Notes under the pieces: model-generated
What the model saw: the letters and a program-made list of their open reading frames with translations, nothing else
What the model was told of the DNA's origin: nothing
Database searches by the model: none
Shown here: in pieces, positions 3,889 through 39,407 of the stretch
How positions within the stretch are numbered: position 1 is the first letter of the stretch
Layout of the letters: each line of letters begins with the position of its first letter
Made by a program: the position numbers and the translations under genes
From: Laccaria trichodermophora
Taxonomy: Eukaryota > Basidiomycota > Agaricomycetes > Agaricales > Hydnangiaceae
Assembly (NCBI GenBank): GCA_018417955.1
Contig: JACTVC010000003.1
Span: forward strand, 620,001 to 684,000
Length of the DNA: 64,000 nucleotides
Direction: 5' to 3'

Positions 3889-6800
3889 ATGCCTGATGAT
3901 TTGACCAGCAGTACTTCATCTCGACAACTATGCCGTCGTTTTTTGAGGGGCAGCTGTCCTGACGGGGAAGGATGCAGATACATTCATGCCAATTCGGACT
4001 CTACTGTACGTTCGAAGCTTCTAGAGTTCACGTCTTGATGTTGTCCATGCAGGAGACCCCTCCTTCTCGTCCTAGTGGAACAGGACGACGTGGGCGTGAT
4101 AGGCGTCGCCGAAACCTTTCATCATCAGAAACACAGGCGGCGAGCTTGAGTGGGCCTCTGCTGGTTCCCCAATCTGTGTACGTCCTAATCTTGAATGTGG
4201 CGAGCTACAATGACTATAAATGTGATCTTCAGTATTCACCAGAGTTCGGTACTACTTTTTTCCGTTATTCCAATGTCTATCCCTCTAATGTTGGTATCTC
4301 GAACAGCGAGGAATTGAAGTTGAACAAAGGATACAACCAACAGTCGATGAAGTCCAGAATATAGCAATAACGCATACGGCGGTGGGGGCACAGCAACTAA
4401 TGGATCAGGAAGGACCACGGGAACCGCCTCGTGATGGGGACAGCCGGCGCCGAGGCAAGGAGGAGGCTCAAAGGGCTGATAGGAGGAGAATGGCTGCTGA
4501 GGTGGCGCGTATACAGGCTGAGGAGTGTGCAAAGGAAGAAGCATCGAGAAAGGAAAGAGAGGAACTAGAGCGAGCGGCGTTGGAGGAACGCAAAGCTCAG
4601 GCAGCCCGGGAACAACAAGAAAGAGCACGTGTTAGAGAACAACAGGCACGGGAAGAGGCAGCACGCAAAGCCAGGGCGGAACGAGAAGAAGCAACGCGGC
4701 GAGCCCATGCAGCGCGTGAGGAAATTAAACGAAGAGCACAACAAGAACGAGAGGAAGCTGAACGAATTGCGAGGAAAGCCCGGCTGGAGGAGAGACGAGC
4801 AGAAGAAGCTCGTGTGACCGTGCAACAGATGGTTCTCGGATCCGCCTTGGTGACTTGTGGTGCGGGAGTCGACATTCGCTCTGTCATCACTGGATTTGAC
4901 CTGCTCCGAGTTGTCGTGAAAGACCTTCCCCATAACACCAATTTCAATGACGTGGCGTCAGCATTCACCCTATTCGGTGTCAACCCCGAAAATGTCAACC
5001 TTCAGGAGACGAAACCCAATGATAGATTTGCAGATGCTATTTTTTTGATGAAGGCGGACCAAGTCGAATCGATTGCAACTGGTTCAGATCGCACCATTGA
5101 TTTCCAAGGTCGGCGCTTGCAGTTTGAAGTTGGCCCAATTTCCTCTGAAGATTCTATGACCCTTTCATCGCACAACACCAATACCTTGACTGTTTACTGG
5201 CGAGTTCCATCCACATCGATGATCGCCACCTACCCCTCATTGGAAGTTGCAAAAGCTAAGGCTAAGGAGCTTGACGCCAAAATGTTGCGTGGACAGAGAG
5301 TGAAAGCAGTCATGAATACTCCGCCACCGACGCCTCACAGCTGGCGGGAATTTAACCCCGCTTCGGTCAAACTTATGAACCTCCCCCTTAACGTGCCATT
5401 AACTGAAGTTGAAGCATTCTCTGGAACGTCTTCCCTTCGCGTCCTCAGTTCTCCAACATACATTCCTGAGGAGTTCATCGAGTTTTTGCGCAAGCATCTT
5501 GAGGGTCTTCCAGGTGTTAATCGGGGGACGTTTGTTTGTCTTCCCAGCAGGGCTCCAAATCCTACTTCCCGAGTAGAGATTCAATTTCATAGCTGGGAGG
5601 AGGCGAGATTTGCATCCGATACTCTGAACAACCATAGGCTACGGAATGATTTCCCCTATGTTCACACCTTGCTTCCCAGAGCACATCGATACTTCGCCAA
5701 CATTTCTCATGAACAATATCGTTCACAGAAAAACCGTTGGGATTCACTTGTTCAGGAGAAAGGAAAGGGAATGGCTCGTGTTCAAGTACATAATCGCACA
5801 GATGGCCGCGTTGTTATTACGGTTGAAGGGAACGACAGGAAGGCAGTTGGCGCTCTCAAAGTCCGTGTTGAAAGCCTTCTTGCTGGAGAGCGTCTGGAAC
5901 CTAGCCATTGGGATCGCTTCTTTCTTTCGGGCACTGTATCCGAAGGCCTACAGGAGCTTTACGCCGAGTCGGGGGCATATGTTCGGATCGACAAACAATT
6001 CCCAGCTCTGAGAGTTTATGGTGCTGCGGAGGCCCGCGTCAGAGCTAAGGAGTCAATCAATTCATGCATTGAGGCCCGATCGACTTCCTTAGATCGGGTT
6101 ATCCCACTGAAGCAACGATCCGTTCCGTATTTTGTGAGACGCGGCTTGGCTTCGTTGAAAGAGCTTATCGGGGAGGACAATGTTTCCTTGGATCTCACGT
6201 CCACCCCACGCAAGCTGACGATCAAGGTCGGAGAAGACGCTCACCATCACCTACAAAGAGTTATGGATGAATCACTCGAATACTCCAACCTCGACCAGGC
6301 TCTCATGGATATATGTCCCATCTGTTGCGACGCTACTTCTCACCCCGAGACCCTTGCTTGTGGTCATTCATATTGTACCTCTTGTCTCTGGCATTATCTG
6401 GAATCGGCAGCCAACACAAAGAAATTCCCGCTAGCTTGCATGGGTAACAATGCCACCTGCAGGACACCGTTACCAATTCCTCTCATCAAGAGGTTCCTGA
6501 CTGTACAACGATTCAACCAGCTCGTTGAAGCTGCTTTTCTCTCCTACGTTGACCACCACCCGCGAGAACTTAAACACTGCACGACTCCGGATTGCAATCA
6601 GATTTACCGAAGAGATCTGACTAAACCATTCCTGCAGTGTCCTGCTTGTTTTTCGACAATCTGCTCTTCCTGCCAGGAGGAGTCCCACGAAGGGATGACA
6701 TGTTTACAAATCAAGCGTTATGGCCTCACAGCTGGACAGGAGTGGTTTACGGAGGATTGGGCTTCCGCTCGTGGCATCAAGAAATGCCCTGGGTGTGGCA

Positions 6801-7465
6801 TTTGGATCGAAAAGACGGTTGAAGGATGCAATCACTTGACGTGTAGATGTGGTGACCACATTTGCTGGAAATGTATGGGCATCTTCACTGCTGAAACGAT
6901 CTACGTGCACATGCGCAACGTACACGGCGAAATCTATGACGAACCACCACAGCGGGTCTTGGAGGAGCAAAAGAAAGCCCAGCTTTTAGCTGCGCAAGCG
7001 GAGCGCGAGCAGCAAGAACGCGAACGACAGAGACAGGCAGCTTTGCAGTATCAAGCCGAGATACAACGCTTGCGAGCTCTGGAACAGGCTCAGGCTCAGG
7101 AGGCGGCCAATCGTCAACGCCAATATGCGGAGGCTCAACGACAGCGGGAAGAAGCACGCCGACAGGAGGAGGAGCGCAGAAGGGAGGAGCGCCAAAGAGA
7201 AGAATGGATGAGAGAGGCTCGAGCTGCGAGAGAAAGGGAACTTCAACGACAGCAATTAGAAAGACAACGACGAGAACAAGAGGAAGCCAGGAGGACGTCG
7301 GAAAGGCAACGACGAGAACAAGAGGAAGCCAGGAGGGCGTCGGAACGGCAACGACGAGAACAAGAGGGGGCGTCGGAGGAGGGTGGTGGAGGCTGGGGTA
7401 TTGCTATAGCTGGGGTTCTTGCGGCTGTTGGGATCTTTGCTACTAGGAGCTTATTTGGTCGCTGA
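3889..7465 (+). CDS. RBR (RING-IBR-RING) ubiquitin ligase with CCCH finger and C-terminal hydrophobic tail (copy A)
   Basis: Proposed exons are 3889-4005, 4053-4175, a 16-nt micro-exon 4233-4248, and 4311-7465, giving 1136 residues. The micro-exon could instead be skipped by one longer intron (4176-4306). Exon 1 encodes one CCCH zinc finger (C-x7-C-x5-C-x3-H, residues ~15-34). A long Glu/Arg/Ala coiled coil follows, then RRM-like and KH-like segments, then RING1 (CPICCDATSHPETL), IBR (CTTPDCNQIY) and RING2 with the presumed catalytic Cys in EGCNHLTC. RBR ligases pass ubiquitin through that cysteine. After RING2 comes a second charged coiled coil containing 14-residue repeats. The protein ends in a short hydrophobic stretch (GIAIAGVLAAVGIFA) and TRSLFGR, which suggests a tail-anchored membrane protein. 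This differs from copies B and D, and A has only one CCCH finger. The precise cellular target is unknown. Confidence 0.85.
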
Positions 7466-8019
7466 TTTGTTTCGCGTTGTTGGTTGGGGTCATAGCAGAC
7501 AGAACAAGGCCTTACTTCTACTTACTCAAGGCAGATATCGGACATTTTGAAAAGAACTGTTAAGGCCCTGCAGAAAACGTGAATACATGTACTTTCAATG
7601 GGAGGATGAAGGGAGACGGAGCTGGCACGAAGCTTGGGGCCCAAACAAGGTCAAGTCGCCGTTTACAAAACATTCAACAGCAATTGTCTTATGCTTACTT
7701 GCGGATGGACGAGGGGTTGCGAATGTGAGGAAGCTTCAAAGTCGAGCGTTTGGGACTATCATCGAAAACTGCCAGTGGTCATTCTCATTCTTAAAATCTA
7801 CATAGAAACATCTGCACCTCGGCGGGCGACTCAGAGACATAACCGTGCTTTGCTCTCGGACTGCGTATATGAAAAGACCCAACTAAACCGGAGACCAATG
7901 GGGCTGCACAGCTTGGTTCTACAGCCTCACATCGGAACGGTTGAGACGGCGACCATATCGAATTTCTTGCCATCCTTTTGGAGCCTCAATTTCGCGAAGC
8001 GTAGCCTATAAAGACGCTG
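7466..8019. other. Intergenic, 3' flank of copy A
   Basis: I see no supportable gene. The open frames are short and lack domains or conserved splice patterns. Confidence 0.4.
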
Positions 8020-9189
8020 TTATTGGCCCAGCATACCACGTTTGTCATGAATTCCGATGCCAAACAGGCTTCCCGATCTGTGGGCCACGGCTTTGTAAGG
8101 GGGGGATACAAATCCCCTCCGATAGAGATAACACACCGGGAGGGGTCAACCAAGCCATCGAAAACGGCAACAACTTTGTCGTGCGCTTCCTGAACAGGTA
8201 TTCGAAGGGCTTGAGTAAGTCGTGATTGATAGGTAGGGCTGTGATATGGCGTCAGTCCAACGAAGACTTAAAATATTTGAAGAAACTCACGACATGATAT
8301 ATTAGCAATATTCTCCCTTCATTATGTAAAAGATGGAAGCTCGTCTCCAAAGCTTGAACGCAGTTCTTTGGTCGTCTCAGCTTCAAATGCCTTTGTTTGA
8401 CCGTGCCCGTCGGATAGGGTGATGGTGATATCCAAGAGCCTCTCCTAATTTGCTGGTAAAGGGGAAGAGGGTGTGCACCGCAGTAGGGATCGCCGACATT
8501 GACGCCAGGTGACAAGATCTTGCATATTTAGCGGTAAAGCTGGCCTCCTGAGAGCAAAGAGTACATCACGCCCGGGGAGTGTTCTCGCTTGTCCAGGACA
8601 GTCCAGCGTGAGTGGAGAGTAGCAATAATCTCGGCGAAACACTTCGGTGAGGTCTAACGTCGATGCAGGGCTACTCGTACACTTTAAATTGTTGCACTGT
8701 TTGGCATTGTCAAAAAGAAGAAAATTCGCGCTTAGAATTCGACGTACCGGTTTGATCTCAGCAATATCGTGACTATGCATGAAGATTCAGCTCAAAAGAG
8801 CCATCCATTTGGCCCCATCTGGCGATGGAGGAAGTTGCGGCTACGGTATGGTGAACTTGAGCATTACTTAGATTTCGAAAGGCCAAGTGGGATATTGTGG
8901 TCAACACGGCGTCTCCTGTTTGGCGGACCAAAAAACATCATTGATTGCACACAATCTGTTCACTGACGGTGCCAGGTTCAAATCTGACAGATACGACCTC
9001 AGCTAGTACCCAGGCCATCGAGGCATAAAATGCTTGGAACGGAGGGCTTTATGTAACATACATTGGGCCGGGCTCGGGGGAACACTTTCTTTCGCGCCGA
9101 AGGTGAGCAAATTTGAAGAAGCGCCTGATGTCTGCCATAATGCTTATCATTGCTGTTCATATCTCAGTAGCGCCCAGGTGCGGCAATCG
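8020..9189. repeat. Duplicated intergenic block upstream of RBR copy B
   Basis: By eye this block matches 20680-21780 in the same order. Both start with sequence that at 20680 lies just downstream of a P450 stop codon (shared 'CCCGATCTGT' and 'GGGATACAAA'), and both run into the RBR promoter. A shorter version lies at 13911-14413. The P450 that would be expected to its left is missing here, so this copy of the segment is truncated. It probably contains the RBR promoter. Confidence 0.7.
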
Positions 9190-9219
9190 ATGAACAACGT
9201 GTCCTTGCCAGCAACCGCC

Positions 9220-12200
9220 ATGTTCGAGGAGTCCCTTCCGGAAGGTACCTCTGGTACTCATATATCTCCAACTAGACAACCTTGCCGTCGTTTTCTAAAT
9301 GGCGGCCACTGTGCTTTTGGAGAAAGATGCAGGTATCCTCACATCAAACGTTCTGTATGTATATTCCCCAATTTCAGGATAGTATATCCCAATCGACTTG
9401 TCTACAGGAAATGCCATGTTCTCGCCCCAGTCCGACAGGACAGCATAAGAAGGGCCAGCTGGGCAATCAAGCTTCGTCTGGAAGGCGAACAGCGACCTCG
9501 GAAGATCCATTGTCAACCCCTCGACCTGCGTAGGTTTTCGATCTGCATCTAAGTATTGAACCACGGGTACTCATAGTCGCCCTTCGAATCCAGTGCAGAG
9601 CCGAGCGACCCGGAATACGCCTCCGCCGCTTGGGCGACTCTCGTACCCACAACTGTTACCATAGCAACTCCAGCGTCGGCCCCATCATGGAAAGTTAACA
9701 CCACTGAGAATGGTACACAGCAACATCAAAGTCTGGCCTCCAAAAAGCCGTGTTTTGCCTGGAGGGCTGGTCACTGCCGTTTTGGCCTTAGATGTCGTTA
9801 CAGTCACCAGGTCGAGGCATGTTGTCATCGGTCACTGGGTAATTTGTCTCTAATATTATTTTACAGATACGAAACCCTAATCAACATAACGTTGACACGC
9901 TTGAACACAACATGCCTGGAGCGCCAAACGATAGAAGTACAACGATAGTGCCGCCCATGCTCGTAAACCAGCAGGAGGCGCAAGGATTTTCTCGCGGAGG
10001 CTATGGAGGCCCAAGCCGGCGAGGGCGTGGAAGAGCCCAGGGAGGGAGAAAATTTGTCAAGGCTGAACGGAAAGTTGGAGCAGAACAGGAGGAAGTCGCA
10101 CGGAGAATCAGAGTTGAACAAGAGGAAGCTGAACAGAAGGCCAAAGAAGAACAGGAGGAAGCCGCACGAAAAATCAGAGTTGAACAAGAGGAAGCTGAAC
10201 GGAAAGCCGAAGAAGAACGACAGGAAGCTGCACGGAAAGCGAGAGAAGAACGGGCGGAAGCTGCACGAAAAGCGAGAGAAGAGCAAGAGGAAGTCGCACG
10301 AAAAGCAAAAGAAGAGCGAGAGGAAGCTGCGCGAAAAGTGAGGGAACGGCGACAGGAAGCCGAACGAAGAGCTCGGCAAGCTCAGCTGGCAGAGCGTCGA
10401 GCACAGGAAGCTCGGGTAACTGTGCAGCAGGTGGTTTTAGGCTCCAGCTTGGTGACATGCGGTGCAGGCATCGACATTCGTGGTATCATAGGCGGTTTTG
10501 ACCTTTGTCGAATTCTCGTGAAGCGCCTCCCGAGAAACGCCAAGCCGGATGAGGTAGTGGGGATTTTCTCCCAACAGGGCGTGGATGCAAAGGACTTTTT
10601 CCTGCTTGAGATGAAGCCCAATGGGGGCCATACAGAGGCGACAGTTCTGGCGAGGGCAGAACAAGGTGAAGTCATCACGCTTGGATTGGACGGCATCGAA
10701 TTTCGAGATGAGCGTCTACGGTTTGAAGTCAGCGCGAATGCATCCTGGGATTCTATGGGTTCATCGGGTGACAACTCCAATACTTTAACCATCAGCTGGA
10801 GAAATCCATGCACCACAATAATTGCCACATACACGTCTATCGATCTGGCAAGAGTCATGGCCAAGGAGCTTGATGGGCAAATTTGCAATGGGCGCAAAGT
10901 CAGAGCAGTCATGAACCAGCCACCTACAGGTCCTGCTTTGCGGCACTACAACCCAGCTTCAGTCAAACTCACGAACTTGCTCCTAAATGTTCCATTAATT
11001 GATGTTGAGATATTCTCTGGAACAGCCTCTGTCCGGGCCCTCTCTTCACTGGCATATGATGCTCAAGAGTTCACCGAATTTCTACGCAATCACCTTGAGA
11101 ATTGCCCGGGCGTCATTCCTCGTTCATTCACCATCATACCCAGCAATGGAAGGGATTACAACATCTGCGTAAAGGTTCGTTTTCATACCTGGGAGGCAGC
11201 GAAAACCGTTTCAGACGCACTGGACAACACCAAGCTCCGCCATGATTACCCTTTCATTCACACCTCACTCCCCAAAGCACTTCAGTACGTCATCAACATC
11301 CCGCGCATGCAATACGATTCTCAGAGCAAGCTATGGAATTCGCTCATGGAAGGAAGAGAAATCGCCATGGCTGGTCTTCACGTCCAAAATCGTTTTGATG
11401 GTCGCGTGATTATTAAGGTTACGGGGGATGACAAGAAAGCAGTGGGTGCTCTCAAAGTCAGAGTCGAAAGTCTCGTTGGCGGGGAGCGTCTTGACGCCAG
11501 CTATTGGCACCGCTCGCTTCTCTCGGCCGCTGGACAACGGTTCCTGCATCAAGTCCGTACGACGTGCGGGGCCTACGTCCGAACAGATACGAAGATACAG
11601 GCTTTGAGAGTTTACGGCAATACCGAAATGGTGGACGAAGCCAAGGAGTTGATCAAGGAAGAAGTCGAGAGACTCTCGCTCCTGGAGTGGGTTATTCCGC
11701 TCAAACGACAATCCGTCGGATACTTCGTGAGACGAGGATTAGCTGCCTTGAAGGAAGTCCTCGGAGAGGACAATGTTTCCCTTGATTTAGCTTCTACGCC
11801 CTGCAGACTGACAATAAAGGGTGGAGATGAAGCTCGTCACCACTTGAGCAGGCTTTTGGATGAATCGCTCACAAACTTCAGCCTGGACCAAAATTATGTA
11901 GCGGACGGAGACGACATCTGCCCCATCTGTTATGACACGGTTTCACATCCTGAAAGCCTTGGTTGTGGACACACATACTGCACTGCGTGCCTTCGGCACT
12001 ATCTGACCTCAGCGCCCGACACTAAGAAATTTCCACTCCTTTGTATGGGCAATGAGGCCACCTGCGACACGCCGATATCAATTCCCATAATCAAGAAGTT
12101 CCTCACTGAACAACGATTCAACCACCTCATCGAAGTCGCCTTCCTCTCATATCTCGACAAGCATCCGCAGGAGTTTAAGTATTGCACGACTCCGGATTGC

Positions 12201-12857
12201 AATCAGATCTACCAAAGCAATTCAACCAAAGCAGTCCTCCAGTGTCCTTCTTGCTTCTCAACGATCTGTCCTTCGTGCCATGAGGAAGCTCACGAGGGTA
12301 TGACATGTGATGAAAGAAAGCTTCACAAAGAAGAAAGGTTGACCAACGAGTGGGCTGCTATGAATGGCGTCAAGAAATGCCCGACCTGCAGTGTCTGGTT
12401 AGAGAAGACGGAAGGATGCAACCATATGTCGTGTAAATGTGGCGCTCACATTTGCTGGAGGTGTATGGGTGTCTTCACTGCAGGAACAATCTACGACCAC
12501 ATGCGCACAGCGCACGGGGGATTTTACGACGCTGCTCCACAGGCAAATCAGCCGGTCCCAAACAATGGGGGAATATACAACGCTGCGCCACAACGGGCAA
12601 ATCAGCCGGACCCAAACAATATTCACGCACTTTTCGCGGACAATCAGTTTCTTGCAGAACAAAGAGCGGAACTCCAACGTTTGGAACTTCAGCGTCAAGC
12701 GGTCGCACTGAGACGGGTGAGGGAAGAGGCACAAAGAGAGATCTTTCTGCGGGAAACGGAGAGACGTCTTGCAGAACGAGAGGCACTTGAAGCTCAGAGA
12801 AGGCAGGAGACTGAGAGGAGGCGGGAGGAGGGTGGAGGTTGGTGTACTATCATGTAG
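9220..12857 (+). CDS. RBR ubiquitin ligase with two CCCH fingers and C-terminal CaaX box (copy B)
   Basis: Exons are 9220-9354, 9408-9529, 9594-9810 and 9867-12857 (1154 residues). I chose ATG 9220 because it is the start shared with copy D; an in-frame ATG at 9190 would add ten residues. Exon 1 encodes a C-x8-C-x5-C-x3-H finger and the end of exon 3 a C-x7-C-x5-C-x3-H finger; such fingers usually bind RNA. Next come an RG-rich stretch (GGPSRRGRGR), a charged coiled coil with 11-residue periodicity, RRM-like segments (ICNGRKVRAVM), KH-like segments, and an RBR module with RING1 CPICYDTVSHPESL, IBR CTTPDCNQIYQ and RING2 catalytic EGCNHMSC. The last four residues are C-T-I-M, a classical farnesylation-type CaaX box. 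The family resembles the C-terminal half of plant DEAH11/12-type RNA-binding RBR proteins, but lacks a helicase. Confidence 0.88.
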
Positions 12858-13159
12858 TGTAGCGAATTTGCTAAGATGACGGCGGGAGCCCAATTCATCA
12901 GTCTCCGCATGGATGAAAGAAGCTAGATATCATATTGTCAATCGGACAAGTAAATAAAACAAGTTAGTAGCTACAACCATCTTAGCTGCAAACACTGCTT
13001 TTTACACGATGACACCTCTTTTGGTATAGTGAGTTTTGTGTACTATGGTCAATCCGTACAGGAGGAAAATGTGGGTGTAATGCTGGGTATCAGGGGAAGC
13101 GGCGAAAAAGTGCGGAGTCTCAAGGCCACCAATCTGACGGAACCCCAATCAGCGTGACA
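12858..13159. repeat. 3' flank of copy B, duplicated at 25482-25784
   Basis: This noncoding stretch matches the 3' flank of copy D almost base for base over long runs, for example the shared 'ATCCGTACAGGAGGAAA'. It belongs to the segmental duplication. No gene is seen. Confidence 0.65.
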
Positions 13160-13910
13160 GCGTCAAAGCCATCGCTGACATGCTTAGCGAGACCAAAGTT
13201 GCCTTGCCCAACTCTCAGTTTTTATCGATCCTGCGGCTGCGCTGCTGGCAGCGGAGGCCGATGTGGAGGACAATGATGTGGAAGACGAGGAAGAGGCTCG
13301 CTAGCCTGACGCGACGGCACTGCTAGATATAATCTTGGGCGCAGCGACAGCCTTCTAGGGATCCTTGAGCGCTCCTGAACCCCATGAAATTGCGGTGCCA
13401 TCTGACTGGGTAGCACCGGAAAGGGCAACGGAGACACCTTTGGGAAAGGCAATGGTGAAGCAAGTGGTCCACGTCTTGTTACTGACCACGGATGACGTTT
13501 ACTGGAAGAAGTAAATATAGGGGTATGTTGTTGCCTAGTGGGATATCTAGTCAATTGCTTCGTTCAGCATCACATTGGTTCTAACAACTCACATCTGGGA
13601 AATATAATTCAGTAGTTCCATCTTGCTTAGTAACAACGGCTGAGGGCGGATGTCAGCCAGTGTTGGTTATGTTGAATACAGAGGGGACATACTGGTAAGG
13701 AAAACCACATTGTAGTTATCTCATCATAAGCTCGATGGGCATTTTCTTCCAGATCGTTTTGAAGACTGTCACCCTTCCATGTCATCATCAAGCACGACGC
13801 GCCTCCGTTGAACTTTGTGCCTGGTCTTAGGGGATGACAACTGCGCCGACGAAACTGAGAGGTGTCGAGACGATCCCCAGAAACAAAGTTATCGTCAAAA
13901 TTGCGAACAT
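13160..13910 (-). pseudogene. Decayed copy of the Kre9/Knh1-like GPI-protein gene
   Basis: Reading leftward from an ATG complement at 13910, the sequence follows the intact gene at 30031-30881 through all three exons and their introns. It is broken by in-frame stops, including one in the conserved 'YFYQFTS' stretch (here YFFQ-stop), and by indels. The Ser-rich C-terminal tract is also interrupted. It lies between RBR copies B and C, as the second decayed copy does after RBR copy D. Confidence 0.75.
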
Positions 13911-14413
13911 CTTTTCGGGGAGAAGGGAAGAAGACGTCTTGATTTGAAGAAAGGATGCATTCAAATTGTAGATTGGCGTATGTTTAACAAGGATTCGCCC
14001 TACGCATGGAAGTTCAGCTCAAAAAAGCCTCCGTTTGGACGATGTAGCAAGCGGCTGTGGTGTCTTGAGCATTATCGTGGGCGTTCGCTGCGAGAGACGA
14101 TTGTGTCACAACAGCGTGATTACAGCCTCATTCAAGTCTCATCAGGCAGTCACCACTCGGACCAATAATTGAAATTGGAGACGGTTTTTCAAAGGTTGGA
14201 CTCATTTTCACTTTACTGACATTACCAGGTTCAATTCTGACAGATACAACTCCGACCAGGGCCTGTTCCAAGCATTTTATGCCTCAATCGCCCAGTGGGC
14301 TTTGTAAGGCTATTCCTTGGAACGCCTTTTTTCGTGCCGAACGTGAGCGCCTGATGTCTGCCATAAACTATTATTGGTGTTCTTTTCTAAGTAGCGCCCC
14401 TGCGCGGCAATCG
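13911..14413. repeat. Partial duplicated promoter block upstream of RBR copy C
   Basis: This corresponds to the right-hand end of the blocks at 8020-9189 and 20680-21780, with shared words such as 'TTCAGCTCAAAA' and 'GCGGCAATCGATGAACAACG'. It presumably retains part of the RBR promoter. Confidence 0.6.
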
Positions 14414-17400
14414 ATGAACAACGTGCATCAAACGTTCTGTATGTATATTTCACGATTTCAGGATATATCACGTAATTCTCATTCAACTTGTCTACAGGAA
14501 ATGCCACCTTCCCACCCCAGGGCGACAGGACAGTATAAGAGGGGCCAGCCGGACAACCAAGAAGGTCAGGCTTCGTCTGAAATGCGAACGAGCTTGGAAG
14601 ATCCTTTGTCAAACCCTCGATCTGCGTAGGTTTTTGATCTGTATCTAAGTATTAAACCACGGGTACTCATAGTCGCCCTCCAGTGCAGAGCCGCGCGACT
14701 CGGAATACGACTCCACCGCTTTGGCGACCACCGTACCCACAACTGTCACCATGGCTCCGGCGTCGACCGATCCTAATCAACATGACATCGACACTACTCA
14801 AAAGCCTGAACACAATATGCCTGGACCGCTGAATGATAGAAATGTAACGATAGTACCCCACGTGCTCTTAAACCAGCAGCAGGAGCAAGGACCCCCTCGC
14901 GGAGGAGGCTATGGAGGCCCAAGCCGGCGAGGGCGTGGAAGAGCTCAGAGAGTGAGAAATTCTGTCGAGGCTACGCGTTCACAGAAGCAGGAGGAAGAAG
15001 AGGATGGGACACCGGACAGGACGAGAGAAGAACGTGGAGATGCCCAGCTAGCAGGGCATGCCCCAGAAGAAGGCGCACGTCGGTCAAGAATAAAGCTGCA
15101 TGTCAGAGTGGGACGAGACGAGGCTGAACGGAAAGTAGATGGAGGACAGGAGGAAGCCGCCTGGAAAATCAGAGTTGAACAAGAGGAAACTGAACAGAAA
15201 GCCAAAGAAGAACGACAGAAACTTCCACAGAAAGCGAGAGAAAAACGGGAGGAAAAGATTGCACGAAAAGTGAAAGGAGAGCGAGAGAAAGCTGCACGAA
15301 AAGCGAAAGAAGAGCGAGAGGAAGCTGCGCGGAAAGCGAGGGAACAGCGAGAGGAAGCCGAACGAAGAGCCTGGCAAGCCCAGCTAGCAGAGCGTCGAGT
15401 TCAAGAAGCTCGGGTAACTGTGCAGCAGGTTGTTTTAGGCTCCAGCTTGGTGACATGCGGTGCAGGCATCAACATCCTTGGTATCATAGGCGGTTTTGAT
15501 CTTTGTCGAATTCTCGTGAAGTGCCTGCCGAAAAAAGCTAAAGCGAATGAAGTGGTGGAGATTTTCTCCCAACAGGGCGTGGATCCAAAGGACTTTTTTC
15601 TGCTTGACATGAAGCGCAATGATGGGCATACAGAGGCAACGGTCCTGGCGAGGGTGGAGCAAGGCGAAGCCATCGCGCTTAGATTGGATGGCGTCGAATT
15701 TCGAGATAAGCATCTACAAGTTGAACTCAGCGCGAATGCATCCTGGGGTTCATCGGGCGACAACTGCAAAACTCTGACCATCAGCTGGAAAAATCCATCC
15801 ACATCAATAATTGCCACATACACGTCGATTGATCAAGCAAGAGTCATGGCCAAGGCGCTTGATGGGCAAATTTGTAACGGGCGCAAAGTCAGAGCAGTCA
15901 TGGATCAGCCACGTCGAGGTCTGCGCCACAACCCAGGTTCAATCAAACTCACGAACCTGCTCCCAAATGTTCCATTAGCTGATATTGAGCAATTCTCCAA
16001 AACATCCTGCTTCCGGACCGTCTCTTCCCCGACATACGATGCTCAAGAATTCACCGAATTTCTGCACAGTTACCTCGAGGATTGCCCTGGCGTCGTTCCC
16101 CAGTCATTCGTCAGCATGCCCAGCAACGAAAGGGATGACAACGTCCGCGTAAATGTTCGGTTTCATACCTGGGAGGCAGCAAAATCTGTCTCAGATACGC
16201 TGGACAAGACCAAGCTCCCGGGCCGCCATGATTCCCCCTTACTTAAAACCTCGCTCCCCAAAGCGCTCCAGTACGTCATCAGCATTCCACACGTGCAATA
16301 CAAATCTCAGAGCAAGCTATGGAATTCGCTCATGGAGGGGAGAGAAAACGGCATGGCTGGTCTTCACGTCCACCAACGCCCGAATGGTCGTGTGATTATT
16401 AAGGTTACGGGGGATGACAAGAAAGCAGTGGGTGCTCTCAAAGTCAGAGTCGAGAGTCTCGTTGGCGGGGAGCGTCTTGACGCCAGCTATTGGCACCGCT
16501 CCCTTCTCTCGGCCGCTGGACAACGGTTCCTGCGTCAAGTCCATACGACTTGCGGGGCCTACGTCCGAACAGATACGAAGATACAGGCTCTGAGAGTTTA
16601 CGGCGATACCGAAATGTTGGACAAAGCCAAGGAGTTGATCAAGGAAGAAGTCAAAAGGCTCTCGTCCCTGGAGAGGGTTATTCCGCTCAAACGACAATCT
16701 GTCCGATACTTCGTAATTCGAGGATTAGCCGCCTTGAAGGATGTGCTCGGAGAGGACAATGTCTCCCTTGACTTAGCTTCCACGCCCTGCAAGCTGATAA
16801 TCAAGGGCGGAGATGAAGCTCTTCACCCCGAACTTTTGGATAAATTGCTCACAAACTCAAAGCTGGATAAAAGTTATGCAGCGAATGGGAATGACATCTG
16901 CATCATCTGTTATGACACGGTTTCACATCCCGAAAGCCTTGGCTGTGGACACACATACTGCACTGCGTGCCTTCGGCACTATCTGACCTCAGCGCCCGAC
17001 ACAAAGAAATTTCCGCTCGTTTGTATGGGCAATGACGCCACCTGCGACACACCAATATCAATTCCCATCATTAAGAAGTTCCTCACTGAACAACGATTCA
17101 ACCACCTCATCGAAGTTGCCTTCCTCTCATATCTCGACAAGCATCGGCAAGAATTTGGGTACTGCACGACTCCGGATTGTAGTCAGATCTACCAAAGCAA
17201 TTCAACCAAAACAGTCCTCCAGTGTCCTTCTTGCTTCTCAACCATCTGTCCTTCGTGCCATGTGGAAGCTCACGAGGGTATGACATGTGATGAAAGAAAG
17301 CTTCACGAACAAGAAAGGTTGACCAAAGAATGGGCTGCTACAAATGGCGTCAAGAAATGCCCGACCTGCAGTGTCTGGTTAGAGAAGACGGAAGGATGCA

Positions 17401-17753
17401 ACCACATGTCGTGTAAATGTGGCGCTCACATTTGCTGGAGGTGTATGGGTGTCTTCACTGCATAAACAATCTACGACCACATGCGCAGAGAACACGAAGG
17501 TATATACGACGTTGCTCCACAGTGGGCAAATCAGCCGGGACCAAACAACGTTCACGCATTTGTTGTTGATGACCGGTTTGTCGCGGCACAAGAGGCGGAA
17601 TTTGAGCGTCTGGAACTTCGACGTGCACAGAGACTAGCGACTCCGAGGGCGAGGGTTGAAGAGGCAGTAAGAGAGAACCTTCGGCGGCGGCGTCAGGAAA
17701 TGGAGAGACATATTGTAGAACAGGAGGAGGTACTTGAAGCCCAGAGAAGGTAA
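14414..17753 (+). pseudogene. Truncated RBR ligase paralogue (copy C), CCCH fingers and C-terminus lost
   Basis: A frame of 997 residues can still be assembled (14414-14625 joined to 14684-17465), so a truncated product is possible. Compared with B and D, three things are missing. A deletion removed nearly all of exon 1 with its CCCH finger, so the former first intron reads through in frame. A second deletion removed the second CCCH finger and fused exon 3 directly to exon 4. A GAA-to-TAA change at 17463-17465 stops the protein just after RING2 (MGVFTA-stop). The lost coiled coil and a degenerate relic of the CaaX region remain recognisable downstream to about 17810. The coiled coil, RNA-binding-like region, RING1, IBR and RING2 with its presumed catalytic Cys are intact. 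It could be a dead gene or a soluble, unanchored regulator. Confidence 0.8.
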
Positions 17754-18594
17754 CAGAGGGCGAGAGAAGGACTCCAGGAGGTTTTGGTTGTATTACATAA
17801 TGTAACGGATGAAATTTGAAAGTTCAAACTGTCCAGCGAACAATCTGCGAAAATATAATAGCAAAACGAGTCCTCATTCAAACGTCGGTGCGCGTAACGC
17901 TACAGTCGCCACAACCATCTCAGCTGTACGCTACTTTTGAACACGCCACCTAATCACTTTGTGCCAAATCAGCTGACGATTTTTTTTTTCAATACCCAGC
18001 AGGGCGCCGCAGGCAAATTTCTTTTGACTTGGAAGATGCATTTACACGGATTTTGCACGTTGACTCCTACTGTAACCATTATACCCCACCAGCACAAAAG
18101 CAGCTTATTCTCGATCTTTTCCACTTCAGGCCTGACTGAAGAGTCGACTACGAGAAGGATGCGACTCTTGCACTGGCGTATTCAAGAAAGAGTATTAGCA
18201 ACTTTGAGGACGTCAAAGGAAGCAAAACCATGGTAGCGGACGCGACTGCCTCAAGGTATTTACTTACCTAAAGTCCGGCACCGCGACATCGGCCCCGCGC
18301 CAGCATAACCACAATTGGGTTCATCGACTGGACCCTTCAAGGGTTTATAGGCATACGATACTGTATAGTGTAAGGTGAGTTCAAAGTTCTTAGTTGACAC
18401 AAATTCATATGAATCATGCTCAGGACGCGTTCAACTCTAGATGCACAATCTTGAAGCGGGCAGCATGGAGCTCAAGGCGTATTTGCCTCAGATGTACTTC
18501 TTTCGAAGCCATCATCCTGATGGGTGACGCAGTTTGACTCGGAAATAGATTACATATACGCAAGTTGCGATGGACTATTGCCTGCAGACTAGCC
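17754..18594. repeat. Upstream flank of P450 copy 1, duplicated at 26810-27461
   Basis: From about 18080 the sequence parallels 26950-27461, with shared words such as 'GAGAAGGATGCGACT' and 'AAAGGAAGCAAAACC'. A possible coding remnant (EKDATLALAYSRK in one frame) is interrupted by stops in both copies, and I do not recognise it. The part nearest 18594 is the P450 promoter and leader. Confidence 0.55.
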
Positions 18595-20628
18595 ATGGCA
18601 GCCACCCTCGATTGGCTTCTTTCAACCCACGAAGGCTTCCCTAACCACCTCTTTTCTCTCACTGCCATCATATTCGGAGTCATCGTGCTGGTCCACCGCC
18701 TCGGCGAGACTCGTAAAGTGCGTTACTGAAGCGTTCACATTTCAGTGGGTTGACCGTCCATTGTAGCTGAAGCACATCCCTACCTTGGGATTTGACTGGC
18801 CAATTCTATCCTATCTCGACGCACTTCGCTACTTTTCCAATGGAAAAACCTACGTTGACGAGACCGTTGCCAAAGTACGTCGTAAAGCTCAAAATTGTTC
18901 TGACACTGACGAAATATGGTAGTTCCCGAATCAAGTCATCAAAATACCAGATTTTTTACATTGGAAGGTTGTATTGTCTGAGTCTGATGCAATTGAAGAG
19001 CTGCGTTCAGCCCCCGAGGATGCGCTGTCATTCTCTAATGCGCAAGATGAGGTATCTAATTTCTGATTCCAGGGTAAGTGTACTTTTGCTAACGATCTAG
19101 CTGTTAATAGTTTCTTCAAACGGTTTACACACTCGGCCCCGGCTTCAGTGAAGCACCACACCACGTATCTATTGTCCGGTCACAACTCACTCGGGCCCTT
19201 CCAAAACTTGTTCTAGAAGTGCATGACGAAATTGTCTCTGCTTTCTATGAGTTAGTCATCTCACCGAACGATCACGGCGAGCTACTTTCTGCAGAAGGCC
19301 TTCTCAGTAGTCTTACAAAGTCATGACCAGGTTGGAAGAGCTTTACGGCTTTAGAAACAATGACGGAGGTGGTATGCCGAGCAAGCAACCGCGTCTTCGT
19401 CGGTCTTCCTTTGTGTCAGTCAGCCCTCATTGTCATGGATTTCTCTTTTCCAACGTTGCTTCCTACAGGCCGCAACCCAGAATACCTCAAGCTTAGCATG
19501 CAATTCACTACCGAACTTCTCGCCATGACCACCTTCCTTCAGTTGGTACTACCGTTCTTGAGACCGTAAGTCTTACTTGAAGTTTCTTCAATGCAAGTTG
19601 TGAAACCCAAATATCGGCAATAGGGTTGTCAGCCGCTTCTTTTCAAGGCTTCCGGGACGTTTCCAGCAAGGAGTAAGACACCTCAAACCCATTGTTGACG
19701 CTCGCAGGGAGGAACAGGAAAAAGTCGGAGATGGGTATGAGAAGCCGGTCAGTTTTCTTACTTCCTTGAACCTCGAATCCCTTGCTCAATGTCAGACCAC
19801 TACTATTAGCTTGATTTTCTATCATGGCTTGGATGAGGCCAAAGACGATGAACAAACTATAGAAAATCTCACAAGACGCGTCCTAGTTGTGAACTTCGCT
19901 GCTATCCACTCATCTTCAAATGTGAGTTATTCCATGTCGACGCCTCTCCAGTCACTCAACTCACCGCGTGTTGGGGGTTACACAGTCGTTTGTCCATGCT
20001 TTATTCTATCTAGCTGCTTTACCCGAATATATCGCACCCCTTCGCGCAGAAGTCGAGGAGGTCATCGAACGAGAAGGCTGGAGCAAAGAAGGCCTAGATA
20101 AGATGCACAAGGTCGACAGTTTCATCAAGGAATCACAGCGAATGAATCCTATCGGAAATCGTCAGTGTTGCTCTTTCTCGCAGATAGCCTACGCTGACGA
20201 CTACCATTTCAACAGTCTTGATGGGGCGTGTTGCTAGGAAGGAATACACATTCGCGGACGGCACCTTCATTCCCAAAGGAACCACAGTCTGTGTCAATTG
20301 TACGCCAGCTCACAACGATCCAGAAAAGTACGACAATCCCCATCAGTTTGACGGCTTTCGCTTTGCGAAAATGAGGCTGCTGCAGGACGGTAGGAAATAC
20401 GATATGGTCACCACCTCACCAGAGTTTTTGCTGTTCGGACATGGACGCCATGCCTGCCTCGGACGCTTCTTTGCTGCCTGCGAGCTCAAGATCATGCTGG
20501 CGCGCACTGTTCTCAATTACGACATGAAGATGGAGAATGAGGGTGTGCGGCCCCCTGATCTGTGGTTTGCATCAGCCTGTATACCCAATCGGAAGGCGAA
20601 GGTAATGTTTCGCAGACATGCAAGGTAG
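18595..20628 (+). pseudogene. Cytochrome P450 monooxygenase, copy 1, probably inactive
   Basis: The copy begins MAATLDWLLSTHEG with an N-terminal membrane segment and follows copy 2 exon by exon. P450 landmarks are visible: an I-helix NFAAIHSSS, the ExxR helix (KESQR) and a heme loop FGHGRHACLGR with its Cys ligand. Three defects set it apart. The donor near 19276 reads GCGAGC where copy 2 has GTGAGC. Near 19830 two bases are missing relative to copy 2 (TGGCTTGGATGAG against TGGCTTATGGACGAG), which shifts the frame; a cryptic upstream acceptor could restore it with about a dozen altered residues. The heme loop has Leu where copy 2 and most relatives have Pro. I call it a probable pseudogene, though cryptic splicing cannot be excluded. 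Confidence 0.7.
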
Positions 20629-21789
20629 GGAGAGATGCTATGTAGGGCTAGTGTATATTATAATCATACGTTATTCGCTCAGCATACATGAAGTCCGATG
20701 GAAGACAGGCCTTCCGAAACCCGATCTGTCCACGACGTCTGTGTAAGGGAGGGATACAAACCCTCTGCGCAAGAGATCGTGGTCATCGCATGGGTCAACT
20801 AGGCACCGAAAATAGCAACAATTTTGTCTTGCACTTCCGGAACAAGTTTTGGAATGGCTTCAAGAGTAAGTCGTAATCAGTAGGGGCGTGATATGGCGTC
20901 AGACCGGAACAAAGACGTAATCTATCTGAAGAAACTAATAACAGTATTATATTAGCAAAATTTCCCCTCGATTATATGACCATGAGGTGTGCTGCATCTT
21001 CAAGTTGGTTTTGATCGTCCGAGGATAGCAGCTCGTCTCCAAAGTTTGAACGCGGGTCGTCTCAGCTTCAGACGCCTTTGTTTGACCATGCCCGTCTTGT
21101 GCCTGTCAGATAATGAGATGGTGATATCCAAGAGCCTCTCCTAATTTTCTGGTATTTCCGTTCAAGGAGGATGAGGAAGAGGGTGTGCACCGCGGTAGGG
21201 ATTGCCGACATTGACGCCAGGTGACAAGATCTTGAGAGCTAAGAGTACATTACGCCCGGGGAGTGTTCTCGCATGTCCAGTCGGACAGTCCAGCGTGAAG
21301 TGGAGAGTAGCAATAATCTCGGCGAAGCACTTTGGTGGGGTCTAACATTTGAAGGGCTACTTGCTTGGCACTGTCAAAAAGAAGAAAAAAGTTCGCGCTT
21401 AGAATTCGACATACCGTTTGGGTCTCAGATCTCAGCAACGGTATCGAAGCCTGGCCCCATCTGGCGATGGAGCAAGTTGTGTCTCAATTAAACAGCGTGA
21501 TCACAAGGTCTCATGTTTGGCGTTTCAGTCACGACTCGGACCAATATGTACTTGCACACAAATCTATTCACTTTGGTTAAACGGTTTCCCAAAGTTGGAC
21601 TCATTTCACTTTACTGGCGGTTCAAATCTCGACTTTCTTTCGCAAATTTGAAGAAGCGCCTGATGACTCTGCCAAAATGCTTATCATTGCTGTTCCTTTC
21701 TGAGAATCTGAGTAGCTCCCACTGGGTCACGGTGCGGCAATCGATGAACAACGTGTCCTTGCCACTGTTGCAACTTGCCAGCAACACCC
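20629..21789. repeat. Duplicated intergenic block upstream of RBR copy D
   Basis: This matches 8020-9189 in order and content. The left part is the 3' flank of P450 copy 1 and the right part is the promoter of RBR copy D. No independent gene is seen. Confidence 0.65.
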
Positions 21790-24700
21790 ATGCTCGAGGA
21801 ATCCCTTCCAGAAGGTACCTCTGGTACCCATCATATATCTCCAACTAGACAACCTTGCCGTCGTTTTCTAAATGGCGGCCACTGTCCTTTTGGAGAGAGA
21901 TGCAGGTATTCTCACATCAAACGTTCTGTATGTATATTCCACGATTTCAGGATAGTATATCATCTTATTCGACTTGTCTACAGGAAATGCCACGTTCTCG
22001 CCCCAGTCCGACAGGAGAACCTAAGAGTGGCCAGACGGGCAACCAAGAAGGTCAGTCTTCGTCTAAAGGGCGAACAACGAGCTTGGAAGATCCATTGTTG
22101 ACCTCTCAACCTGCGTAAGTTTTCGATGTGTATCTAGGTATTAAACCACGAATACTCATAGTCGCCCTTCAGTGCAGAGCCGAGCAACCCAGAACACGAC
22201 TCCACCGCTTTGGAGACTACCATACCCACAACTGTCACCATAGTAGCTCTGGCGTCAGCCCCATCATCGAAAGTTAACACCACTGAGAATGGTACACAGC
22301 AACATCAAAGTTGGGCCTCCAAAAAGCCGTGTTTGGCCTGGAGGACTGGTCACTGCCGTTTTGGCCTTAGATGCTGTTACAGTCACCAGGTCGAGGCATG
22401 TTGTCATCGGTCACTGGGTAATTTGTCTCTAACATTATATCACAGGTGGGAAATCTTAATCAACATGACATTGACACCACTCAAAAGCTCGAACACAACA
22501 TACCTGGCGCGCCGAATGTTATGAATGCAACGATAGTGCCGCACGTGCACTTAAACCAGCGGGGGGAGCAAGGATTCCCTCGGGGAGGAGGACATGGGGG
22601 TCTAAGCCGGCGAGGGCGTGGAAGAGCTCAGAGAAGGAGAAATCTTGTCGAGGCTGAACAGAAAGCTAGAGAAGAACAAGAGGAAGTTGCACGGAAATTC
22701 AGAGTTGAACAAGAGAAAGCTGAACAGAAGGTCAAAGAAGAACAGGAGGAAGCCGCACGAAAAATCAGAGTTGAACGAGCAGAAGCTGAACAGAGAGCCA
22801 AAGAAGAACAACAGGAAGCTGCACTGAAAGCGAGAGAAGAACGGGAGGAAGCTGCACGAAAAGCGAAAGAAGAGCGAAAGGAAGTTGCACGAAAAGCGAA
22901 AGAAGAGCGAATGGAAGCTGCACGAAAAGCGAAGGAAGAGCGAATGGAAGCTGCACGAAAAGCGAAGGAAGAGCGAATGGAAGCTGCACGAAAAGCGAAA
23001 GAAGAGCGAGAGGAGGCTGCACGAAAAGCGAAAGAAGAGCAAGAGCAGCTAGCTGCGCGAAAAGCGAGGGAACAGCGAGAGGAAGCCGAACGGCGAAGAG
23101 CTCGGCAAGCCCAGCTAGCAGAGCGTCGAGCACAAGAAGCTCGGGTAACTGTGCAGCAGGTGGTTTTAGGCTCCAGCTTGGTGACATGCGGTGCAGGCAT
23201 CGACATTCGTGGTGTTATAGGCAGTTTTGACCTTTGTCGAATTCTCGTGAAGCGCCTCCCGAGAAACGCAAAGCCGGATGAGGTAGCGGGGATTTTCTTC
23301 CAACAGGGCGTGGATCCAAAAGACTTTTTTCTGCTTGAAATGAAGCCCAATGGTGGGCATACAGAGGCGACGGTTCTGGCGAGGGCAGAGCAAGGTGAAG
23401 TCATCACGCTTGGATTGGACGGCATCGAATTTCGAGATGAGCGTCTACGGTTTGAAGTCAGCGCAAATGCATCCTTGGATTCTATGGGTTCATCAGGCGA
23501 CAACTGCAAAACCCTGACCATTATCTGGAAAGTTCCAACCACATCAATAATTGCCACATACACGTCGATTGGTCTGGCAAGAGTCATGGCCAAGGCGCTT
23601 GATGGGCAAATTTGTAACGGGCGCAAAGTCAGAGCAGTCATGGATCAGCCAAGTCGAGGCCTGCGCCACAACCTGGCAGCTTCAATCGAACTCATGAACT
23701 TGCTCCCAAATGTCCCATTAGCTGATGTTGAGAAATTCTCTGGAACATGCGCCCTCCGGGCCGTCTCTTCACTGACATATGATCCTCAAGAATTCACCGA
23801 ATTTCTGCGCAATTACCTCGAGAATTGCCCCGGCGTCATTCATCAGTCATTCATCAGCATGCCGAGCCTGAGCAACGAAAGGGATGACACCTTCCGCGTA
23901 AAGGTTCGGTTTCATACCTGGGAGGCAGCAAAATCTGTCTCAGATACACTGGACAAGACCAAGCTCCGCCATGATTACCCTTTTCTTGAAACTTTACTCC
24001 CCAAAGCGCTTCAGTACGTCATCAACATTCCACGCGTGCAATACAATTCTCAGAGCAAACTATGGAACTCGCTCATGGAAGGGAGAGAAAACGGCAAGGC
24101 TGGTCTTCACATCCAAAATCGCCCAGATGGTCATGTGGTTATCAAGGTTACAGGGGATGATAAAAAAGCAGTGGGTGCTCTCAAAGTCAGAGTCGAAAGT
24201 CTCGTTGGCGGGGAGCGTCTTGACGCCAGCTATTGGCACCACTCTTTTTTCGCGGCCGCTGGACAACGGTTCCTGCATCAGGTCCATACAACGTGCGGGG
24301 CCTATGTTCGAACAGATACGAAGATACAGGCTCTGAGAGTTTACGGCAATACCGAAATGGTGGACGAAGCCAAGGAGTTAATCAAGGAAGAAGTCGAAAG
24401 ACTCTCACTTCTGGAGTGGGTTATTCCGCTCAAACGACAATCCGTCGGATACTTCGTGAGACGAGGATTAGCTGCCTTGGAGGAAGTCCTCGGAGAGGAC
24501 AATGTTTCCCTTGATTTAGCTTCTACGCCCTGCCAACTGACAATCAAGGGTGGAGATGAAGCTCGTCACCACTTGAGCAGGCTTTTGGATGAATCGCTCA
24601 CAAACTTCAGCCTGGACCAAAATTATGCAGCGGATGGGGACGACATCTGCCTCATCTGTTATGACACGGTTTCACACCCTGAAAGCCTCGGTTGTGGACA

Positions 24701-25481
24701 CACATATTGCACTGCATGTCTTCGGCACTATCTGACCTCGGCGCACGACACAAAGAAATTTCCACTCGTTTGTATGGGCAATGACGCCACCTGCGACACA
24801 CCAATATCAATTCCCATCATTAAGAAGTTCCTCACTGAACAACGATTTAACCGCCTTATCGAAGTCGCCTTCCTTACATATCTCGACAAGCATCCGCAGG
24901 AGTTCAAGTATTGCACGACTCCGGATTGTAGTCAGATCTACCAAAGCAATTCAACCAAAGCAGTTCTTCAGTGTCCTTCTTGCTTATCAACGATCTGTCC
25001 TTCGTGCCATGAGGAAGCTCATGACTCGGAGGGTATGTCATGTGATGAAAGAAAGCTTCACAGTAACCCGGCTGAACAAGAAAGGTTGACCAACGAGTGG
25101 GCTGCTATGAATGGCGTCAAGAAATGCCCAACCTGCAGTGTCTGGTTAGAGAAGACGGAAGGATGCAACCATATGTCGTGTAAATGTGGCGCTCACATTT
25201 GCTGGAGGTGTATGGGTGTCTTCACTGCAGAAACAATCTACGCCCACATGGAGACAGAACACGGAGGAATATACGACGTTGCTCCACAGTGGATAAATCA
25301 GCCGGAACCAAACAATGTTCACGCACCTGTCGCTGACAACCAATTTCTTGAGGTACAAAGAGCGGAACTCCTACGTCTGGAACTTCAGCGTCAAGCGGCG
25401 GCACTGAGACGGGCGAGGGAAGAGGCACTTGAAGCTCAGAGAAGGCAGGAGGGTGGAGGTTGGGGTTGTACTATCATGTAG
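21790..25481 (+). CDS. RBR ubiquitin ligase with two CCCH fingers and C-terminal CaaX box (copy D)
   Basis: Exons are 21790-21927, 21984-22114, 22173-22389 and 22446-25481 (1173 residues); all phases agree. Two CCCH fingers have ligands C23, C32, C38, H42 and C143, C151, C157, H161. An RG-rich tract and a long coiled coil made of 11-residue units follow. Next come RRM-like segments (residues ~390-540), KH-like segments (~700-880), RING1 (from ~894), IBR, and RING2 (from ~1056, catalytic Cys in EGCNHMSC). The C-terminus is G-C-T-I-M, a CaaX box predicted to be farnesylated. The likely role is an RNA-binding, membrane-tethered ubiquitin ligase; substrate and biological trigger are unknown. In copy D the upstream ATG used as an alternative start in copy B is out of frame because of a short insertion, which supports the start at 21790. 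Confidence 0.88.
22853..23045 (+). repeat. 33-bp coding minisatellite in the coiled coil of copy D
   Basis: About six tandem 33-bp units encode the 11-residue repeat EAARKAKEER(M/E/K). Copies A, B and C have fewer or more diverged units. An 11-residue (hendecad) period fits a nearly straight coiled coil, and the perfect in-frame unit length allows expansion without frameshift. Confidence 0.85.
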
Positions 25482-29486: not shown

Positions 29487-30030
29487 GAAGAGATGCTACG
29501 TAGGTCTAGTGTATATTGTAATCATTATTCCGTTGAGTGGAAAGCACTTGTCACCATCCCTTCACAAAACAAGTTGCGGTTGTAACGAGGCCAAGAGCAT
29601 CAGGCATCCAGAAGAACAGATATTGTGTGTTCCTCCAAGTTTTGCCATTGGGCCTTGTGCTCTGGTTGGCAGTCAAAGAAGCGAAGTAAGTAGGAATATG
29701 GCAGTTTAGGTTGTCACCCTTCCTGTCCTACATGATCATGCGCAGATCATTCATTAATGATGAGGGTACTTAGTATGAGGGGTAATTGATATCTATCATC
29801 CTGATATAGCCCATAGTCATAACGTTCGACTTCAGGATATGGATAAAGCAAACGATGCAAGCAATTCCATGGTATGACGATGATTATGCTAGTGGAATAC
29901 CTAAACCCAGGGGAAAATATAATGCCCAAGATCGTGAATCGTTGATAAATATAACGAAAAGCCAAGTCCGTAACCGATAATGATGCAGAGGATAACAGGA
30001 GGGCACAGTGTGCCCTCCGTCACGACAGGA
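29487..30030. other. Intergenic region between convergent genes
   Basis: This is the 3' flank of the P450 (+) and of the GPI-protein gene (-). It is AT-rich and contains no open frame with a recognisable motif. Confidence 0.5.
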
Positions 30031-39328: not shown

Positions 39329-39407
39329 CCCCCAGTAACGAGACTCACCGCTTTTACTGCACTTGTGCACTGCTGCCCTATCTTATCTCACGGCTATTTA
39401 TAGCATC

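What the first reader, a model, noticed from the sequence alone, without database searches (positions are those of the whole stretch)
3889..25481. RNA-binding-type RBR ubiquitin ligase family with switchable membrane anchors
Four paralogues combine CCCH fingers, a coiled coil, RRM/KH-like segments and an RBR catalytic module. The C-termini differ: A ends in a hydrophobic tail anchor, B and D end in C-T-I-M (CaaX), and C stops after RING2 with no anchor. I know of no described family in which paralogues trade a tail anchor for a prenyl anchor next to RNA-binding fingers. Such proteins could sense RNA at a membrane and ubiquitinate nearby targets, for instance in defence against RNA elements or in organelle quality control. 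The function is inference.
Basis: partly seen in the sequence, partly recalled or inferred. Interest (0 to 1): 0.88.

Follow-up and report, generated by a model that had tools for sequence, protein, structure and literature searches.

The report
RNA-binding ubiquitin ligases with swapped anchors
A mushroom genome carries a cluster of large proteins that look like RNA-binding, protein-tagging enzymes fixed to membranes by a lipid tail, and in one branch that tail has been replaced by a membrane-crossing segment while the enzyme's active site changed.

Summary
C has lost both CCCH fingers, and a nonsense codon follows RING2: an eroded copy. The proteins belong to an agaricomycete family with no description found in my searches. 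Its D-like branch typically ends in Cys-aliphatic-aliphatic-Met: 108 of 148 homologues listed, and 108 of 120 aligned rows with at least 100 residues after RING2. A second branch (paralogue F) stops soon after RING2: 0 of 120 listed have the motif. The prenyl motif is therefore the usual state and A's tail the exception. A, a fifth copy E 70 kb away and three unnamed homologues form one clade with hydrophobic tails instead. All five also have a changed RING2 active site: Ser for Cys in E and P0014, one extra residue before the catalytic Cys in A, P0012 and P0015. Best reading: farnesylated, membrane-tethered, probably RNA-responsive RBR ligases, with a Laccaria-like branch re-anchored by a tail anchor and catalytically altered. 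RNA binding, prenylation and function are untested.

The parts
3889..7465 (+). Copy A gene, exons 3889-4005, 4053-4177, 4233-4248, 4307-7465; 1138 aa, tail-anchored type
   Evidence: in-frame splice model
3931..3987 (+). A: single CCCH finger (C-x7-C-x5-C-x3-H)
   Evidence: Pfam zf-CCCH 1.1e-06
6311..6955 (+). A: RING1-IBR-RING2 (ends approximate); one extra codon (GTT) before the catalytic Cys
7397..7462 (+). A: C-terminal hydrophobic tail (GIAIAGVLAAVGIFATRSLFGR), putative tail anchor in place of CaaX
9220..12857 (+). Copy B gene, exons 9220-9354, 9408-9529, 9594-9810, 9867-12857; 1154 aa
   Evidence: in-frame splice model
9283..9342 (+). B: CCCH finger 1
   Evidence: Pfam zf-CCCH 1.3e-05
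9751..9807 (+). B: CCCH finger 2
   Evidence: motif in spliced model
12843..12854 (+). B: CTIM CaaX box
14673..17465 (+). Copy C open frame (930 aa, stop to stop); CCCH-less, truncated after RING2, eroded
14425..14426 (+). C: junction of the deletion that removed the CCCH1 coding segment present in B and D
   Evidence: comparison of printed sequences
17463..17465 (+). C: nonsense TAA where D has GAA
   Evidence: also flagged as 1 TAA inside the match
21790..25481 (+). Copy D gene, exons 21790-21927, 21984-22114, 22173-22389, 22446-25481; 1173 aa
   Evidence: in-frame splice model
21856..21915 (+). D: CCCH finger 1
   Evidence: motif
22330..22386 (+). D: CCCH finger 2
   Evidence: motif
22623..23141 (+). 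D: long charged predicted helix (main-exon residues 68-240), partly in 33-nt repeats
23205..23996 (+). D: RRM fold followed by RRM-like segments (main-exon residues 262-525)
24009..24626 (+). D: three KH-like segments (main-exon residues 530-735), assigned by eye from the model's secondary structure; weak Pfam KH_DEAH11 match
24645..25268 (+). D: RING1-IBR-RING2; catalytic Cys codon 25164-25166
25467..25478 (+). D: CTIM CaaX box

Best explanation
B and D (and, ancestrally, the D-like branch of this agaricomycete family) are RBR ubiquitin ligases of the cytosolic face of a membrane. N-terminal CCCH fingers, set apart by a long predicted helix, contact RNA; the RRM/KH-like block, next to the RBR module in the chain, may relay binding to it; and the C-terminal CxxM box is farnesylated and tethers the enzyme, so that proteins on RNAs engaged at that membrane are ubiquitinated. 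In a Laccaria-like clade (A, E) the CxxM box was replaced by a single hydrophobic tail anchor, and the active site changed: E lost the catalytic cysteine and is most likely a scaffold or dominant-negative regulator, while A may keep reduced or altered activity. C is a decaying copy without either anchor. Shown: gene structures of A, B and D, domains, conservation, tree, tail classes, active-site changes. Inferred: RNA binding, prenylation, membrane insertion, E3 activity, any biological role.
For: RBR: at 25 Zn-ligand and RING2 positions other than the catalytic Cys, 146-154 of 154 rows carry the same letter, and the catalytic Cys stands in 149 of 151 rows with a letter there; Foldseek lists ARIH2, ARIH1, RNF216, Parkin and HOIP; PDB sequence hits ARIH2, ARIH1, RNF216. 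CaaX: 110 of 148 homologues have Cys at the fourth-last place; 108 of these end in Met, one in Ala (P0088), one in Gln (P0130); a2 is V/I/M/L in 108 of 108, while the preceding tail is low-complexity. F branch: 0 of 120 listed. Tail anchor: A, E, P0012, P0014, P0015 one clade, SH-aLRT 100, nested among CaaM rows; A/E tails conserved (VGIFATRSLFGR against VGIFAMKTLFNS) although dS is about 0.9, with dN/dS 0.24 and 0.16. Active site: Ser only in E and P0014; +1 spacing only in A, P0012, P0015 of 150 rows. RNA side: CCCH in 61 of 77, RRM fold, Pfam RRM_1 over cut-off in 5 of 6 relatives scanned and KH_DEAH11 in 1 of 6.
Against: D's RRM1 lacks RNP aromatics and most KH-like loops lack GXXG, so these folds may be protein-protein modules. 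A CCCH motif is missing upstream in 49 of the 108 CaaM homologues, partly because their N-termini are not held. Foldseek superpositions are loose (rmsd 8-33 A over multi-domain alignments), and the long helix has pLDDT partly below 60. No expression, localisation or RNA data; CaaX use is deduced from sequence alone. The hydrophobic-tail rows outside this genome are four predicted proteins from unnamed contigs, one of them (P0007) possibly a fused gene model.
Confidence: 0.55

Rival explanations
1. A DEAH11/12-like RBR without its helicase: the family acts in general RNA metabolism or ribosome-associated quality control, and the anchor only fixes it near membrane-bound polysomes; no sensing of foreign RNA.
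For: The only named KH models that match are KH_DEAH11 and KH_DEAH11_2nd; sources name three homologues 'ATP-dependent RNA helicase DEAH11' or 'DEAH12' (P0021, P0067, P0126). Widely retained rather than sporadic in the listed species.
Against: No helicase match in the main exons of A-D. Tandem amplification, erosion and differing tails within one genus look more like fast-evolving than housekeeping genes.
Confidence: 0.3
2. A membrane ubiquitin ligase whose RRM/KH-like folds bind proteins, not RNA; the CCCH fingers are a minor feature.
For: Missing RNP aromatics and GXXG; no CCCH motif in 16 of 77 homologues with enough upstream sequence; fingers lost in C.
Against: CCCH motifs are kept in 61 of those 77 and occur in the F branch too (Pfam lists; L010).
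Confidence: 0.25
3. The hydrophobic tails of A and E are neutral read-through extensions after loss of CaaX, without an anchoring role.
For: The tails have no traceable origin: alignment of A's tail with D's 3' flank is no better than shuffles (549 of 1000 shuffles reach it).
Against: Tail sequence and hydropathy conserved between A and E at dS about 0.9 and in P0012/P0014.
Confidence: 0.12

Closest known systems
RBR ubiquitin ligases (ARIH1/ARIH2, RNF216, HOIP, Parkin)
   Same: RING1-IBR-RING2 with Zn ligands and catalytic Cys; best solved relatives by sequence ARIH2 (7.3e-15), ARIH1 (4.2e-14), RNF216 (1.9e-11)
   Different: The extra domains of those proteins (Ariadne, UBL and others, recalled) were not found in the main exons of A-D; here CCCH, RRM/KH-like folds and a C-terminal CaaX or hydrophobic tail
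RBR 'Helicase / Plant I' subfamily (DEAH11, DEAH12)
   Same: KH_DEAH11-type segments just before the RBR, strong only in a relative
   Different: No DEAD/DEAH helicase; the subfamily's characteristic extra domain (PMC2904391, passages read)
ZAP-L (PARP13), long isoform of the zinc-finger antiviral protein
   Same: CCCH RNA-binding fingers in a protein ending in a CaaX box that mediates farnesylation and carries it to intracellular membranes; natural forms with and without the box (PMC8568172, passages read including the abstract)
   Different: ZAP-L has an inactive PARP domain and works with the separate proteins TRIM25 and KHNYN; here an E3 module is in the same chain; A's finger matches ZAP-like and PARP12-like CCCH models only below cut-off, so no kinship is claimed
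OAS1 p46/p42
   Same: Antiviral protein with a prenylated CaaX isoform proposed to act at membranes (mentioned in PMC8568172); RNA sensing recalled
   Different: Different enzyme; isoforms rather than paralogues

Membership tests
RBR ubiquitin ligases | RING1, IBR and RING2 in order with Zn ligands | tested here: met
   Pfam RING and IBR above cut-off in A-D; ligand columns near invariant
RBR ubiquitin ligases | Catalytic Cys in RING2 | tested here: met
   Present in A, B, C, D; absent (Ser) in E and P0014; A has one extra residue before it
RBR ubiquitin ligases | Ubiquitin thioester activity | not testable with these tools
   needs biochemistry
RBR Helicase / Plant I (DEAH11/12) | DEAD/DEAH helicase domain in the chain | tested here: not met
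   no helicase match in the main exons of A-D at E up to 1; the short first exons are far too small for one
RBR Helicase / Plant I (DEAH11/12) | DEAH11-type KH domains before the RBR | tested here: inconclusive
   below cut-off in B, C, D, not listed for A; above cut-off in 1 of 6 other proteins scanned, P0157
Prenylated CaaX proteins | C-terminal C-a-a-X with aliphatic a2 | tested here: met
   B, D: CTIM; 108 of 148 homologues C-x-x-M
Prenylated CaaX proteins | Farnesyl or geranylgeranyl on the Cys | not testable with these tools
   none
Tail-anchored proteins | One hydrophobic segment within about 30 residues of the C-terminus | tested here: met
   A, E: best 17-residue mean hydropathy in the last 45 residues 2.06 and 1.98
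Tail-anchored proteins | Post-translational membrane insertion | not testable with these tools
   none
ZAP / PARP13 | WWE and PARP-like domains after the CCCH fingers (recalled) | tested here: not met
   no such match in the main exons of A-D

The most novel reading that the evidence does not exclude
Agaricomycetes possess a one-chain counterpart of the ZAP/TRIM25/KHNYN system: an RNA sensor and ubiquitin ligase in one protein, farnesylated to a membrane, used against RNA viruses or transposon RNA; Laccaria evolved tail-anchored, catalytically altered or dead paralogues that retarget or restrain it.
Probability: 0.18. Interest if true: 0.87.

Novelty: new variant of a known kind. Interest (0 to 1): 0.6.

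Why it matters
Searches of the held library for RBR ligases with CaaX boxes or CCCH fingers brought up no description of such a protein by their listings (no listed paper of these was opened). Many mushrooms appear to keep one, with the box present in species of Agaricales, Polyporales and Atheliales. The anchor swap coincides with active-site change in one clade, which gives a natural experiment on what a lipid anchor does for a ubiquitin ligase, and a concrete candidate for RNA surveillance in fungi.

Tried and rejected
Origin of A's tail from D-like 3' flank: no better than shuffled sequence (549 of 1000). Alternative splicing of C around its stop: not supported; the homology with D and P0009 runs straight through the stop. 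P0007 (D-like body, A-like tail) as proof of anchor exchange: left open, because a gene predictor may have fused two neighbours. KH fold by structure comparison: the listed solved-structure rows were filled by RRM matches, so KH is neither shown nor excluded there. Prior description: literature searches (5.39 million open papers; subscription journals mostly missing). Odd letters at Zn-ligand columns come from P0093, P0139 and P0150 only; the RING2 His 917 differs in P0063, P0127 and P0128. A first pattern search for the RING2 spacing missed 26 of 152 proteins and was replaced by alignment columns. The tail-length pattern for the F branch matched none of 120, so 'stops soon after RING2' there rests on the printed last 40 residues; P0177 and P0185 are cut within RING2 and P0222 has another end. 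Nine rows (P0011, P0093, P0102, P0103, P0131, P0139, P0150, P0151, P0152) were dropped before the tree. Listings were capped: 120 of 226 hits, 120 of 322; 41 of 41 (28 of them new); each search scored only about 8000 candidates.

Full report
What is there. The window is part of a 59 Mb genome (G000:C23:620001-684000), Laccaria-like by its best named protein matches (L. bicolor, L. amethystina; genus Laccaria is in Agaricales). Four long open frames lie head to tail. Splice models for A, B and D are in frame to a single stop. A carries one CCCH finger, B and D two. A search of the own genome adds E, 70 kb upstream on the other strand (C23:550900-553425), F on contig C76 and a further, more distant relative at C23:1965253. 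E was read as its main open frame (1253 aa); its CCCH finger lies in a separate frame upstream and was not spliced on.

C is different. Its CCCH1 coding segment is deleted, CCCH2 is gone, and a GAA->TAA change stops it right after RING2. Beyond that lie a second stop and a decayed TGTATTACATAA where B and D have the CTIM codons. Its L. bicolor relative P0009 (92.4% over 646 positions) runs through RING2 but also lacks the CaaX box, so the loss of the box seems older than the nonsense codon.

Tails. Of 148 homologues listed by two searches, 110 have Cys at the fourth-last place; 108 end in Met, one in Ala, one in Gln. a2 is V, I, M or L in all 108. Of 120 aligned rows (A, B and E included; D's tail is shorter) with at least 100 residues after RING2, 108 are CaaM, 6 hydrophobic, 1 other CaaX-like and 5 none. 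The motif occurs in Agaricales, Polyporales (Fibroporia P0113) and Atheliales (Piloderma P0078). The F branch (120 of 322 hits listed) ends soon after RING2 by its printed ends and has the motif in 0 of 120. The six hydrophobic tails are A, E, P0012, P0014, P0015 and P0007; they stand apart in hydropathy (1.65-2.06 against 1.14 for the next of 154 rows).

Tree. On 145 of 154 rows and 707 core columns without the tails (quick method, LG+G4, SH-aLRT only), A, E, P0012, P0014 and P0015 form one clade (100) whose sister is the clade of B, C, D, P0010 and close rows. P0007 sits in the latter by its body. P0012 and P0015 are 96.3% identical in body but have visibly different tails, and P0007's tail resembles P0015's. 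This suggests exchange of tails between paralogues, with the caveat that these are predicted genes from unnamed contigs.

Active site. Cys 915 (D main-exon numbering) is kept in 149 of 151 rows with a letter there; the two exceptions are E (codon TCC) and P0014. Fourteen residues separate C905 from C920 in 147 of 150 rows and fifteen in A, P0012 and P0015. I recall that HOIP also has the longer spacing, so A may be active; that comes from no call. All five members of the tail-anchored clade are thus altered at the active site, in two different ways, while dN/dS stays low (A-E 0.24 for RRM-KH, 0.16 for RBR; B-D 0.33 and 0.12; C with B and D 0.41 and 0.46 for RRM-KH).

Interpretation. The anchor change is a derived, single-clade event in a branch whose usual end is a prenylation motif. 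Farnesyl transfer to CxxM boxes is general knowledge (recalled). ZAP-L is the nearest functional parallel: CCCH fingers, a CaaX box that mediates farnesylation, and dependence on membrane localisation for assembling its partners (PMC8568172, passages read including the abstract). The nearest kin by domain is the helicase type of RBR ligases, but its helicase is absent (description from passages of PMC2904391). I therefore file the proteins as RBR ligases of a new variant and leave defence against foreign RNA as the bold reading.

Limits. Homologue lists are capped; gene models of others are predictions; support values come from a quick tree; nothing was measured in cells.

Noticed in passing
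G000:C23:550900-553425 (L005/L009): Fifth paralogue E: open 1253-aa main frame, a CCCH motif in a frame upstream, hydrophobic C-terminus, catalytic Cys replaced by Ser, low dN/dS against A; a likely pseudo-ligase.
   Followed up: yes
G000:C9:634590-848884: Seven further RBR matches scattered over about 214 kb of contig C9, on both strands: a second RBR expansion.
   Followed up: no
L011 (G000:C23:1963000-1968500): A relative with three complete CCCH patterns and an incomplete one in one frame and RRM/KH-like/RING-IBR sequence in the next (by eye).
   Followed up: partly
window 18742-20667 and 27611-29525: Segmental duplication, 90-97% alike in the pieces shown, downstream of C and of D; a 165-aa frame in the first copy has no Pfam match.
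   Followed up: no
window 39339-39965: Copia-type gag (Retrotran_gag_2, 4.5e-32).
   Followed up: no
window 45056-46114, 59722-60435: RNase H2 subunit C on the minus strand; part of a mitochondrial carrier on the plus strand.
   Followed up: no
window 35570-36431 and 38258-38571: Short repeat fields with recurring 25- and 27-nt spacing.
   Followed up: no
P0007 (homologue, 1223 aa): D-like body joined to an A-like tail just before the CaaX position; real chimera or fused gene model.
   Followed up: partly
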